A stretch of 64,000 nucleotides of DNA from Caldisericum exile AZM16c01 (lineage in GTDB: Bacteria; Caldisericota; Caldisericia; Caldisericales; Caldisericaceae). The translations under genes were made by a program, and so were the position numbers. The stretch covers positions 1 through 64,000 of the forward strand of contig NC_017096.1 in NCBI RefSeq assembly GCF_000284335.1. Direction: 5' to 3'. Positions 25,550-55,290 of the stretch are shown one piece after another (position 1 is the first letter of the stretch; every line of letters begins with the position of its first letter). The notes under the pieces are model-generated. The model searched no databases, had not been told where the DNA came from, and saw only the letters and a program-made list of their open reading frames with translations.

Positions 25550-25579
25550 TTGACAAAAGTTAAAAATCGTTAATAATAA
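25550..25579 (+). promoter_or_regulatory. Probable promoter of the AOR operon
   Basis: TTGACA (25550-25555) and a TAATAA (25574-25579) 18 bp downstream, just before the structured leader. The -10 box is imperfect and could shift by a few bases. Confidence 0.55.
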
Positions 25580-25586
25580 CATAAAA

Positions 25587-25698
25587 GGCTTCGACCTTGT
25601 GTGTCCCTTTGGGATAGCAAGGCGATAGGGTTTGAAGAGCAATCTTCAAGCCTGCCTTCTTGCAAAGAAGCCCTAAAATAAGGGCTTCTTATTTTTTT
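25587..25698 (+). promoter_or_regulatory. Candidate riboswitch (Moco/Tuco-like) controlling the AOR gene
   Basis: The leader folds as a closed multi-stem unit. P1 is GGCTTC/GAAGCC (25587-25592 with 25667-25672). A hairpin CCTTG/CAAGG (25595-25599 with 25618-25622) is topped by TCCC/GGGA. A second hairpin TTGAAG/CTTCAA (25632-25637 with 25644-25649) follows. The 3' strand of P1 is also the 5' strand of a strong terminator (25665-25698), so P1 and terminator exclude each other. Ligand that stabilises P1 would then turn the operon on. Upstream of a tungsten/molybdenum-pterin enzyme this suggests a Moco/Tuco sensor, but I cannot confirm the Rfam family by eye. Confidence 0.6.
25665..25698 (+). 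terminator. Attenuator terminator ahead of AOR
   Basis: Ten-pair stem AAGAAGCCCT/AGGGCTTCTT (25665-25674 with 25681-25690) followed by A then T7, 13 bases before the AGGAGG of the AOR gene. Its 5' arm is shared with P1 of the upstream aptamer-like fold. Confidence 0.88.
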
Positions 25699-31284: not shown

Positions 31285-31670
31285 GGGGAGTCTTGTTAAT
31301 CTAACTCCACCCATAAACATTAAAAATCTTTTTATCCTTAGGGGTAAGTTAGAAAGGGGATGTGCCCCTTTCTAATTGAAGTCATCCCGAACAAATATTA
31401 GGGATCTACGCCTTTCAGGGGGAGTTAGAGTGGGAGAATCGCAAGTCCCCCTCTATTAAAAAGAGGAGATTCCTCGCCTTCGGCTTCGGAATGACTTTTA
31501 ATTGTCATGCCGAAATGACTTTCTGAGGCATCTCCTCATTTCAGGGGGAGTTAGAGGGAGAGAATCGCAAGTCCCCCTCTATTAAAAGGAGGAGATTCCT
31601 CGTGGCTTCGCCACTTCGGAATGACTTTTAATTGTCATTTCGAACGCAGTGAGAAATCTCCGCCTTTTAC
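31285..31670. repeat. Dispersed palindromic repeat block R4
   Basis: A gene-free repeat block. About 31315-31435 is essentially the reverse complement of part of block R1 near 4370-4490. It also contains a GTCATTTCGAACG site at 31634-31646, the exact sequence matched by the candidate IS110 bridge RNA target loop, here without an insertion. The remaining gap to the ATPase gene has a TATAAT at 31763-31768 but no good -35. Confidence 0.82.
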
Positions 31671-44360: not shown

Positions 44361-44446
44361 AGATAGTAATTAGTCATCGTATATAATAGTGTAGGTAGTG
44401 AGAATGAGGAGCATATTCTTTAACAGTGCATCGTAAGTATTGTTAG

Positions 44447-44614
44447 AGGTATGTGGGGAAGTGATGATTTTTATCCGGTCATTGGTTTATTAAAACCGTT
44501 CGAAATGTTAAAACCACTTCCCCTTTTCCTCAAGAACCTGCACTTGGTACATTAGGCACATTAGCCTGTATTTACGATGATAGGTCAAGAGGAAAACTCA
44601 ATAATCACATACCT
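44447..44614 (+). ncRNA. Candidate IS110 bridge RNA, copy 1
   Basis: The region upstream of the transposase folds as a three-way structure. An outer stem AGGTATGTG/CACATACCT (44447-44455 with 44606-44614) encloses hairpin A GGGGAAGTG/CACTTCCCC (44455-44463 with 44515-44523) and hairpin B TTTTCCTC/GAGGAAAA (44524-44531 with 44589-44596), each with a large loop. Loop A contains CGTTCGAAATG (44497-44507), the exact complement of the right target flank CATTTCGAACG, plus GTCATT (44478-44483) in target sense. Loop B contains GGTACATT (44545-44552), matching the right end, and TACGATGA (44573-44580), complementary to the left end TCATCGTA (44374-44381). This is the target-loop/donor-loop layout of IS110 bridge RNAs. 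The RNA 5' end is not known and may lie nearer 44390-44430. Confidence 0.8.
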
Positions 44615-44648
44615 AAAATAACTATTACCATTATAGGAGGTTGGATAG

Positions 44649-46067
44649 ATGGAGTCAATACTTGCTATTGGTATTGATGTTTCAAAAGAGAAACTCGATG
44701 TGTCTTTCTTTGATGGCAAAAAGAGAAAGAGTCGTGTCTTCTCAAACAAAGATGAAGGTATTGAAGATCTAATAAAAGAAATTGAAAAGAGAATTAAAAA
44801 GGAGTTTGAATTAGAGAAGAAATTAGAAGAAACGAAAAAAGGTACAAAGAAAAGCAAAAAGAAAAATGATACTAATACCAATACTAATAGTATTACTAAT
44901 AGTACTACCAATAGTATTGCTAATACTACCACTACTGATAATACTCCTACTATTACCGAAGTTCATATCCTCTTTGAATCAACTGGTTCATACCATGCAA
45001 GACTTGCACTTCAGTTGCTTAAGTGGAAAAGAGGAATTGGAGAACATAAAGCAAATGAAGATAGATTATACAATATACCCATCTTCATCTATGTCATTAA
45101 TCCATTGGTAATAAGAAAGTATACTGAAGAATCCCTTGATAGAGCATCAACAGATAAAATTGCATCAGAGACAATCTGTCAGTATGTGTATGAGGCAGTT
45201 TCAAGTAATAGATCAAACATATCCTCAAGACAGTATGAGACTCTTAGGTCATTTTTGTTAGATTCCTCATATGAAGATAAACTTGAGATAAAGATACTCA
45301 TTAAAACCCTTGAAGGACTCAAAAGAACAAGGACAAGAATACTCAATGAGATAGAGGCATTAGAGCAATATCCAGATTCATATGCTCATGATGCAATAGA
45401 GAGTCTAAAGAGAGTATTAATTGAATTAGAGAAAGAGATAAAAGAGATAGAAAAGAAGATAGACAATGTAATTAAAAACAAGGAGAAATACAGAGAACTA
45501 TTCATAAGACTCACAGGTATACCAGGTATAGGTAAAAGAACTGCCTCTGCTATCATTGCATACTTTGGCACATTTGATTCATTTAACGATGCAAAGGAGG
45601 TTTCCTCATATGTAGGACTTACACCATCAATAAAGGAATCTGGCAAGAGTGTAAAAAGAGCATCATACAACATATCAAAGATGGGAAATCCATATCTAAG
45701 ACAATTACTCTACATGGCATCTCTATCTGCATCAAGATACAATACTCAGTGCAAATTGCTATACAATAGACTCCTCACTAAGGGAAAGGAGAAGAAACTC
45801 ATACATATTGCAGTTGCAAATAAACTCATAAGACAGGCATTCTCAATTGTGAAGCTCAATAAGTCATATGATCCAATATATGGATTAGATGAGGATATGG
45901 GAAAAGAGATCCTTAAGGAACATGAAAGAATAAAAGAAAAGAAAGCATTAATGAAAATTCTAAAACAACAGAAAGAGAAGAAGGAAAAGATCAATACCAC
46001 CATCAATAACATACCTATACCATTAGATAACACATTAAACCACTATCCAAATATTGCAGAATACTGA
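44649..46067 (+). CDS. IS110-family transposase (DEDD recombinase), copy 1
   Basis: The 472-residue recombinase begins MESILAIGIDVSKEKLDVSF, the RuvC-like DEDD domain start, with HILFESTGSYH as the next acidic strand. The C-terminal Transposase_20 domain has IPGIGKRTASAIIAYFG and the serine-bearing KRASYNISKMGNPYLRQLLY stretch. An unusual insert (about 75-105) rich in Lys then Thr/Asn/Ser (KKKNDTNTNTNSITNSTTNS) interrupts the N-terminal domain. Start chosen after GGAGG (44636-44640). Opposite-strand frames here are shadows. Confidence 0.95.
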   Translation: MESILAIGIDVSKEKLDVSFFDGKKRKSRVFSNKDEGIEDLIKEIEKRIKKEFELEKKLEETKKGTKKSKKKNDTNTNTNSITNSTTNSIANTTTTDNTPTITEVHILFESTGSYHARLALQLLKWKRGIGEHKANEDRLYNIPIFIYVINPLVIRKYTEESLDRASTDKIASETICQYVYEAVSSNRSNISSRQYETLRSFLLDSSYEDKLEIKILIKTLEGLKRTRTRILNEIEALEQYPDSYAHDAIESLKRVLIELEKEIKEIEKKIDNVIKNKEKYRELFIRLTGIPGIGKRTASAIIAYFGTFDSFNDAKEVSSYVGLTPSIKESGKSVKRASYNISKMGNPYLRQLLYMASLSASRYNTQCKLLYNRLLTKGKEKKLIHIAVANKLIRQAFSIVKLNKSYDPIYGLDEDMGKEILKEHERIKEKKALMKILKQQKEKKEKINTTINNIPIPLDNTLNHYPNIAEY

Positions 46068-46140
46068 TAACTACTATATGGAAAACAATTTTCTAAAAAC
46101 TTTCAAAATTCTCATGAAAAGGTATTGACTTAACACGGTA

Positions 46141-46290
46141 CATTTCGAACGTAGTGAGAAATCTCCTTAGTTCAATCTGAGGGGGCAAAAACCCCCTCAG
46201 CGCTCCCCCCCAAGAAAATCTTTTTGTCCTTTCAGGGGGAGTTAGAGGGGGAGGTTCGTAAGTCCCCCTCTAATATAGGTATTTTGCTCC
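46141..46290. repeat. Dispersed repeat right of IS110 copy 1 (block R7)
   Basis: Begins with the target sequence CATTTCGAACG and continues AGTGAGAAATCTCC, then CCCCCTCAG and GGGGGAGTTAGAGGGGG modules. The same series with many differences follows IS110 copy 2, so the two insertions are in two diverged copies of the same repeat. Confidence 0.82.
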
Positions 46291-53316: not shown

Positions 53317-53442
53317 AATTTGAGGGGTTGAACTGCACCCCTCAATACTCCCCAAAAAGTAATAATTAGTCATCGTATATAATAGTGTAGGTAGTGAGAA
53401 TGAGGAGCATATTCTTTAACAGTGCATCGTAAGTATTGTTAG

Positions 53443-53610
53443 AGGTATGTGGGGAAGTGATGATTTTTATCCGGTCATTGGTTTATTAAAACCGTTCGAA
53501 ATGTTAAAACCACTTCCCCTTTTCCTCAAGAACCTGCACTTGGTACATTAGGCACATTAGCCTGTATTTACGATGATAGGTCAAGAGGAAAACTCAATAA
53601 TCACATACCT
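53443..53610 (+). ncRNA. Candidate IS110 bridge RNA, copy 2
   Basis: Identical to the copy-1 RNA: outer stem 53443-53451 with 53602-53610, target hairpin 53451-53519, donor hairpin 53520-53592. Its target guide (53493-53503) is complementary to this copy's own right flank CATTTCGAACG at 55137-55147. Confidence 0.8.
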
Positions 53611-53644
53611 AAAATAACTATTACCATTATAGGAGGTTGGATAG

Positions 53645-55063
53645 ATGGAGTCAATACTTGCTATTGGTATTGATGTTTCAAAAGAGAAACTCGATGTGTC
53701 TTTCTTTGATGGCAAAAAGAGAAAGAGTCGTGTCTTCTCAAACAAAGATGAAGGTATTGAAGATCTAATAAAAGAAATTGAAAAGAGAATTAAAAAGGAG
53801 TTTGAATTAGAGAAGAAATTAGAAGAAACGAAAAAAGGTACAAAGAAAAGCAAAAAGAAAAATGATACTAATACCAATACTAATAGTATTACTAATAGTA
53901 CTACCAATAGTATTGCTAATACTACCACTACTGATAATACTCCTACTATTACCGAAGTTCATATCCTCTTTGAATCAACTGGTTCATACCATGCAAGACT
54001 TGCACTTCAGTTGCTTAAGTGGAAAAGAGGAATTGGAGAACATAAAGCAAATGAAGATAGATTATACAATATACCCATCTTCATCTATGTCATTAATCCA
54101 TTGGTAATAAGAAAGTATACTGAAGAATCCCTTGATAGAGCATCAACAGATAAAATTGCATCAGAGACAATCTGTCAGTATGTGTATGAGGCAGTTTCAA
54201 GCAATAGATCAAACATATCCTCAAGACAGTATGAGACTCTTAGGTCATTTTTGTTAGATTCCTCATATGAAGATAAACTTGAGATAAAGATACTCATTAA
54301 AACCCTTGAAGGACTCAAAAGAACAAGGACAAGAATACTCAATGAGATAGAGGCATTAGAGCAATATCCAGATTCATATGCTCATGATGCAATAGAGAGT
54401 CTAAAGAGAGTATTAATTGAATTAGAGAAAGAGATAAAAGAGATAGAAAAGAAGATAGACAATGTAATTAAAAACAAGGAGAAATACAGAGAACTATTCA
54501 TAAGACTCACAGGTATACCAGGTATAGGTAAAAGAACTGCCTCTGCTATCATTGCATACTTTGGCACATTTGATTCATTTAACGATGCAAAGGAGGTTTC
54601 CTCATATGTAGGACTTACACCATCAATAAAGGAATCTGGCAAGAGTGTAAAAAGAGCATCATACAACATATCAAAGATGGGAAATCCATATCTAAGACAA
54701 TTACTCTACATGGCATCTCTATCTGCATCAAGATACAATACTCAGTGCAAATTGCTATACAATAGACTCCTCACTAAGGGAAAGGAGAAGAAACTCATAC
54801 ATATTGCAGTTGCAAATAAACTCATAAGACAGGCATTCTCAATTGTGAAGCTCAATAAGTCATATGATCCAATATATGGATTAGATGAGGATATGGGAAA
54901 AGAGATCCTTAAGGAACATGAAAGAATAAAAGAAAAGAAAGCATTAATGAAAATTCTAAAACAACAGAAAGAGAAGAAGGAAAAGATCAATACCACCATC
55001 AATAACATACCTATACCATTAGATAACACATTAAACCACTATCCAAATATTGCAGAATACTGA
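53645..55063 (+). CDS. IS110-family transposase (DEDD recombinase), copy 2
   Basis: Amino-acid sequence identical to copy 1 (472 residues); the only DNA difference is AGT to AGC in a serine codon at 54200-54202. Intact, so the element is probably active or was very recently. See copy 1 for domains. Confidence 0.95.
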   Translation: MESILAIGIDVSKEKLDVSFFDGKKRKSRVFSNKDEGIEDLIKEIEKRIKKEFELEKKLEETKKGTKKSKKKNDTNTNTNSITNSTTNSIANTTTTDNTPTITEVHILFESTGSYHARLALQLLKWKRGIGEHKANEDRLYNIPIFIYVINPLVIRKYTEESLDRASTDKIASETICQYVYEAVSSNRSNISSRQYETLRSFLLDSSYEDKLEIKILIKTLEGLKRTRTRILNEIEALEQYPDSYAHDAIESLKRVLIELEKEIKEIEKKIDNVIKNKEKYRELFIRLTGIPGIGKRTASAIIAYFGTFDSFNDAKEVSSYVGLTPSIKESGKSVKRASYNISKMGNPYLRQLLYMASLSASRYNTQCKLLYNRLLTKGKEKKLIHIAVANKLIRQAFSIVKLNKSYDPIYGLDEDMGKEILKEHERIKEKKALMKILKQQKEKKEKINTTINNIPIPLDNTLNHYPNIAEY

Positions 55064-55136
55064 TAACTACTATATGGAAAACAATTTTCTAAAAACTTTC
55101 AAAATTCTCATGAAAAGGTATTGACTTAACACGGTA

Positions 55137-55290
55137 CATTTCGAACGAAGTGAGAAATCTCCTTAGTTCAATCTGATGGGGAAACTTACCACCTCAACAC
55201 TCCCCCAAAATTAAAAATTCTTTTGTCCTTTCAGGGGGAGTTAGAGGGGAAGATTTACTTGTCCCCTCTAATATAGGTATTTCATTCCTG
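55137..55290. repeat. Dispersed repeat right of IS110 copy 2 (block R8)
   Basis: Begins with CATTTCGAACG and AGTGAGAAATCTCC, followed by GGGGGAGTTAGAGGGG-type modules. It aligns with the repeat right of copy 1 but is clearly diverged, unlike the IS copies themselves. The stretch 55291-55454 to the ECF-type promoter has no gene. Confidence 0.8.

What the first reader, a model, noticed from the sequence alone, without database searches (positions are those of the whole stretch)
44375..46151. IS110 element whose own bridge RNA is programmed for the genome's dispersed repeat
Seen: upstream of the transposase, two adjacent hairpins with large loops sit inside an outer stem (44447-44614). Loop A contains CGTTCGAAATG, the exact 11-base complement of the sequence to the right of the insertion (CATTTCGAACG, 46141-46151). 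Loop B contains GGTACATT, as at the element's right end, and TACGATGA, complementary to the left end TCATCGTA. All four guides meet on one core dinucleotide, CA. Known: IS110 elements use a bridge RNA with target- and donor-binding loops; IS621 uses core CT. Inference: this is a natural thermophile-type bridge RNA aimed at a multicopy chromosomal repeat, which gives the IS many safe sites.
Basis: partly seen in the sequence, partly recalled or inferred. Interest (0 to 1): 0.85.

Follow-up and report, generated by a model that had tools for sequence, protein, structure and literature searches.

The report
Jumping gene guided to chromosomal repeats
A bacterial jumping gene appears to carry its own guide RNA that steers it into a repeat scattered between the host's genes, and one of its four copies shows a one-letter change in the guide matched by a one-letter change in the site it entered, which supports RNA-guided insertion and natural retargeting.

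Summary
44375-46140 is a 1766-bp IS110-group element in a 1.56-Mb Caldisericaceae genome, with four full copies, all intergenic, each at GT|CA of a dispersed GTCATTYCGAA repeat. Upstream of the transposase is a two-loop RNA whose fold is supported by compensatory changes. Three copies carry guide TCGAAATG and sit at CATTTCGA. The fourth carries TCGGAATG and sits at CATTCCGA, so guide and target changed together inside one genome. A covariance model finds the RNA in other Caldisericaceae, Cloacimonadota and Bacteroidaceae. Over 20 elements the right guide matches its own right target far above permutation (98/120 against 68, p about 5e-6); covariation covers core+2 to +5 on the right and -3 to -1 on the left. 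All 12 testable left donor guides match their right ends exactly. A promoter-like TTGACT-17-TATAAT is rebuilt only across the circle junction. Unexpected: the recombinase lacks the fourth D of the DEDD motif, which is essential in IS621. RNA expression and activity are untested.

The parts
44375..46140 (+). IS110-group element, copy A, 1766 bp (a second CA core copy follows at 46141-46142)
   Evidence: Ends fixed by comparing four genomic copies with uninterrupted GTCATTYCGAA sites
53371..55136 (+). Copy B of the same element (one base different), right target 55137-55147 CATTTCGAACG
44448..44605 (+). Bridge RNA core: outer stem, target-binding loop and donor-binding loop
   Evidence: Covariance model match 166.5 bits (the model was built from this sequence among others); compensatory pairs
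44478..44483 (+). Left target guide GTCATT (GT + core CA + TT)
   Evidence: Equals the target top strand GT|CATT in all four copies; LTG-LT covariation at -3 to -1 over 25 elements
44497..44507 (+). Right target guide CGTTCGAAATG, ending in core complement TG; base 44503 is A in copies A-C and G in copy D
   Evidence: Exact complement of 46141-46151; RTG-RT covariation over 20 elements
44546..44552 (+). Left donor guide GGTA-CA-T
   Evidence: Equals right end GGTA|CA; the LDG matches its own right end in 12 of 12 elements
44573..44580 (+). Right donor guide TACGATG, plus A that could pair with target T at -1 (possible handshake base)
   Evidence: Complement of CATCGTA at the left end; handshake role inferred from IS621 (PMC11208158)
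44382..44387 (+). -10 box TATAAT of the circle-junction promoter
   Evidence: 17 bp from TTGACT only when right and left ends are joined
46125..46130 (+). -35 box TTGACT of the circle-junction promoter
44649..46067 (+). IS110 recombinase, 472 aa; D10, E110, D169, A172 (fourth D missing), S331
   Evidence: Pfam PF02371 2.7e-22 and PF01548 3.4e-8; IS621 8wt6 by sequence 3.5e-24 and by fold TM 0.81; catalytic columns
46141..46151 (+). Right target CATTTCGAACG in the dispersed repeat
44373..44374 (+). Left target GT next to the core; GT precedes the core in all four copies
31634..31644 (+). Empty T-allele target site GTCATTTCGAA
41245..41255 (+). Empty T-allele target site GTCATTTCGAA
44189..44199 (-). 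Empty C-allele target site GTCATTCCGAA

Best explanation
The element is an IS110-group insertion sequence that moves by bridge-RNA-guided recombination. Inferred cycle: the recombinase excises the element as a circle at the CA cores. Joining right end to left end assembles a TTGACT-17-TATAAT promoter that drives the left-end RNA. The second RNA loop pairs with the circle's own junction (GGTA-CA-TCGTA). The first loop pairs with GT-CA-TTTCGAA in a dispersed intergenic palindromic repeat, with the right guide doing most of the selection. Recombination at CA inserts the element. A one-base change in the right guide (G to A at 44503; G is the state in copy D and the relatives) moved this lineage from the common CATTCCGAA allele to the rarer CATTTCGAA allele, where it now has three copies. 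Shown here: element ends, copy sites, guide-target and guide-donor covariation, conserved fold. Inferred: RNA expression, excision, recombination and direction of change.
For: Four copies, all in the repeat at the same base, all intergenic. Guide A at T-allele sites in three copies and guide G at the C-allele site in the fourth. RTG-RT matches over core+1 to +6: 98 of 120 against 67.8 permuted, p about 5e-6, also within clades; per position core+2 to +5 p<=0.00065 each; LTG-LT 79 of 100 against 48.1, p 1e-5. LDG equals its own right end in 12 of 12 elements, 48 of 48 bases, p 1e-5. Fold with 9 pairs changed on both sides and 95% of cells paired, against at most 50% in slid controls. Model hits in Caldisericaceae, Cloacimonadota and Bacteroidaceae. 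Circle-junction promoter boxes at 17-bp spacing in three of four element types; 15 bp in the fourth. Protein matches IS621 and ISCro4 recombinases by sequence and fold.
Against: No expression or activity data. In-genome retargeting rests on one divergent copy; permuting guides among the four copies alone gives only 1 in 4. Bridge RNAs can act in trans, so a copy's own guide need not have chosen its site. Some elements fit poorly: G008 (right flank CATCGTATGTT), L152, L158, G005_2, and L054 with one mismatch. The fourth catalytic D is missing, and its mutation abolishes IS621 recombination (PMC11208158).
Confidence: 0.9

Rival explanations
1. The recombinase protein itself recognises the repeat, and the guide-like sequence in the left end is a captured or decaying piece of the repeat.
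For: The repeat is abundant and the guide equals part of it; most relatives also target similar repeats.
Against: Guide and target change together within one genome and among 20 elements, including ones with unrelated targets such as TTTC|CATATCT, TTT|CATTTAAAA and CAAC|CATTGCG; the donor guide covaries too; the guide is split over two sides of an internal loop, as in IS621.
Confidence: 0.04
2. The element is an immobile relic: the recombinase lost the fourth D of DEDD and the copies spread by recombination between repeats or by helper recombinases in trans.
For: A172 replaces the residue whose mutation kills IS621 (PMC11208158).
Against: The 472-aa frame is intact in all four copies. Copies sit at different repeats at the same exact base. 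A relative lacking this D (Cys in its place) has four 100% identical copies in Sphingobacterium sp. CZ-2.
Confidence: 0.06
3. The reader's 11-base match is a chance coincidence.
For: The loops are AT-rich, and relatives do not use the last 3 to 5 bases.
Against: Reversed-pattern control 0 against 11 sites; covariation.
Confidence: 0.005

Closest known systems
IS621 (IS110 group, E. coli; PMC11208160, PMC11208158)
   Same: RuvC-like plus Tnp domain recombinase, left-end bridge RNA with target and donor loops, circle-junction sigma-70 promoter, insertion in dispersed palindromic repeats (REP), target chosen by loop complementarity
   Different: Core CA instead of CT; left target guide short (about 2-3 bases plus core) and right guide long, whereas IS621 has a long left and a short right guide; 472 aa with a long variable region against a 328-aa chain; fourth D of DEDD absent
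ISXne4/ISEc11 natural reprogramming (IS1111 group; PMC11187229)
   Same: Natural change of guide with matching change of target
   Different: Between two elements with 72% identical transposases; here between copies in one genome differing by about 1%, by one base
REP-targeting IS elements ISPpu9, ISPa11, ISRm22 and others (PMC1525189)
   Same: Specific insertion into dispersed intergenic palindromes
   Different: Different repeat (GTCATTYCGAA...GGAATCT)

Membership tests
IS110 group | DEDD RuvC-like N-terminal domain | tested here: not met
   D10, E110 and D169 present, fourth position is A172. The domain itself is present (PF01548; IS621 fold), so it is filed as a variant
IS110 group | C-terminal Tnp domain with conserved Ser (PF02371) | tested here: met
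   2.7e-22; S331-G332, Ser in 95 of 95 aligned sequences
IS110 group | Guide RNA in the long left end, upstream of the gene | tested here: met
   44448-44605 against gene start 44649
IS110 group | Circular intermediate | not testable with these tools
   Only the junction promoter is visible
IS621-type bridge RNA | Two internal loops with LTG/RTG and LDG/RDG sharing one core dinucleotide | tested here: met
IS621-type bridge RNA | RNA expressed and bound by the recombinase | not testable with these tools
   No expression data
IS621-type bridge RNA | CT core | tested here: not met
   Core is CA in all four copies
IS1111 group | Guide RNA in the right end, downstream of the gene | tested here: not met
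   RNA lies upstream; right end is only 73 nt
Known Rfam RNA family | Match at gathering score | tested here: not met
   Only a Moco riboswitch elsewhere in the window

The most novel reading that the evidence does not exclude
A cross-phylum IS110 lineage whose active recombinases do without the fourth catalytic Asp, often with a Glu five residues after the third Asp, and whose bridge RNAs follow allele changes of a dispersed intergenic repeat by single-base guide mutations, observable between copies in one genome.
Probability: 0.4. Interest if true: 0.65.

Novelty: new variant of a known kind. Interest (0 to 1): 0.5.

Why it matters
It shows natural bridge-RNA retargeting at single-base resolution between near-identical copies in one genome, which makes the evolution of guide specificity directly testable. 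It adds a CA-core, right-guide-dominated bridge RNA type found in three phyla. It raises the question of how an apparently mobile IS110 recombinase works without a residue that is essential in IS621.

Tried and rejected
Viral contigs gave no relatives. Rfam has no matching family. Papers: no hit for the repeat sequences, none for insertion sequences in Caldisericum exile, and none of use. A second RNA type in Chitinophagaceae-like loci (L059, L061-63, L074, L075, L078) matched the model weakly and its donor core was unclear, so it was left out of the covariation test. Adaptive meaning for the CCG to TTC change in copy D's left guide was considered and rejected: it does not improve pairing with its left target. 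The fold alone was not used as proof; a single-sequence z of -3.2 is modest.

Full report
Observation. The element is copy A of four full copies in a single 1,558,103-base contig. The organism is a member of the Caldisericaceae: the nearest named relative is a Caldisericaceae MAG. The genome size suggests Caldisericum exile AZM16c01, which is a recollection, not a test. Comparing copies with empty repeats fixes the element as CATCGTA...GGTA followed by a second CA, 1766 bp in all four copies.

Target. The genome has 37 uninterrupted GTCATTYCGAA sites, 9 with T and 28 with C, inside longer imperfect palindromes of the type GTCATTCCGAAggctttagcctgaGGAATCTCC. All four insertions split such a site between GT and CATTYCGAA. 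All ten empty sites in the window and all four insertions lie outside open reading frames, although frames of at least 120 aa cover 77% of the window.

Guide and target change together within the genome. Copies A, B and C have guide CGTTCGAAATG and right flanks CATTTCGAACG, CATTTCGAACG and CATTTCGAAGT. Copy D differs from copy A at 14 positions of the element and one of the flank. Four of the 14 lie in the target loop (three adjacent bases in the left guide and 44503), and one of these, A to G at 44503, is the complement of the one flank change: CATTCCGAA. With 12 T and 29 C sites in all, three T-guides at T sites and one C-guide at a C site has a probability of about 0.02 if sites were chosen at random (own calculation); permutation among the four copies alone gives 1 in 4. 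Relatives carry G at this base in most cases, so A in copies A-C is probably the derived state.

Fold. Five related left ends align at 79% mean identity and share an outer stem with two stem-loops. With the RNAalifold structure given, 95% of cells pair, 9 pairs have changes on both sides, and structures slid by 1-3 columns reach at most 50%. Five sequences are few, the structure was derived from the same alignment, and the shuffles do not keep relatedness.

Wider family. A covariance model finds the RNA upstream of IS110 recombinases in Cloacimonadota and Bacteroidaceae and in relatives within the family. I read guides and flanks by hand. Right ends were located by the conserved right-end motif before CA, or by the donor guide match, not by the target guide match. 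Over 20 elements, Watson-Crick matches between right guide and right target at core+1 to +6 are 98 of 120, against 67.8 when guides are shuffled, p about 5e-6, also within clades. By position, core+2 to +5 each have p<=0.00065; +1 is invariant; +6 is inconclusive; +7 to +9 show nothing. Left guide and left target: 79 of 100 against 48.1, from positions -3 to -1. Left donor guide and right end: 48 of 48 bases in 12 elements, against 37.5. Many of these elements aim at the same kind of repeat (GTCATYCYGA), but several do not (TTTC|CATATCT, TTT|CATTTAAAA, CAAC|CATTGCG, GAC|CATTTGAAA), and their guides follow.

Misfits. G008 has right flank CATCGTATGTT, which resembles a left end, not a target; this may be an aberrant recombination at a donor-like site. 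L152, L158 and G005_2 match poorly, and L054 has one mismatch.

Expression. TTGACT in the right end and TATAAT in the left end lie 17 bp apart only in the circle; G005_1 and G008 have the same spacing, while G005_2 has TATATT at 15 bp. This is the arrangement described for IS621 (PMC11208160). A consensus match is not proof.

Protein. Pfam, PDB sequence search and AlphaFold plus Foldseek (mean pLDDT 82.9, TM 0.81 normalised to IS621) agree on an IS110 recombinase. D10, E110, D169 and S331 are present, but the fourth D is A172. In IS621 mutation of D105 abolishes recombination (PMC11208158). Of 85 aligned proteins 15 lack this D, and 10 of these 15 have Glu five residues after the third D, against 1 of 70 with the D (relatedness not corrected). 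One such relative has four identical copies in Sphingobacterium sp. CZ-2, which suggests that such enzymes are active.

Verdict. It is a variant of a known kind: bridge RNAs and repeat-targeting IS110 elements were known, and so was natural reprogramming between elements (PMC11187229). New here are the single-base retargeting seen within one genome, the cross-phylum right-guide-dominated CA-core lineage, and the missing catalytic residue.

Noticed in passing
window 45153-45170 (codons 169-174): The fourth Asp of the DEDD motif is Ala; 15 of 85 aligned proteins lack it, and 10 of those 15 have Glu five residues after the third Asp, against 1 of 70 with the Asp.
   Followed up: partly
L005, genome 95856-95918: A 63-bp fragment of the element's left end, bounded on one side by CATCGTATGTT; the right flank of the G008 element also begins CATCGTATGTT, inside a gene. 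Possible recombination at donor-like chromosomal sites.
   Followed up: partly
L135 (same genus, G004): A shrunken relic with left end, target loop and right end but no donor loop and no transposase; its guide still matches its right flank CATTCTGA.
   Followed up: partly
L134 (same family, G015): A complete bridge RNA followed by only the first codons of a transposase; the gene is deleted.
   Followed up: no
window 44429-44437: GCATCGTAA, an internal near-copy of the element's left end, 56 bp inside it.
   Followed up: no
window 25577-25686: Molybdenum/tungsten cofactor riboswitch (Rfam RF01055, 47.2 bits).
   Followed up: no
L019, L037: The region between the two recombinase domains is long and Asn-rich or of low complexity in the Caldisericaceae relatives.
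   Followed up: no
window 31485-31644: Cluster of three repeat units in alternating orientation, like a composite REP array.
   Followed up: no
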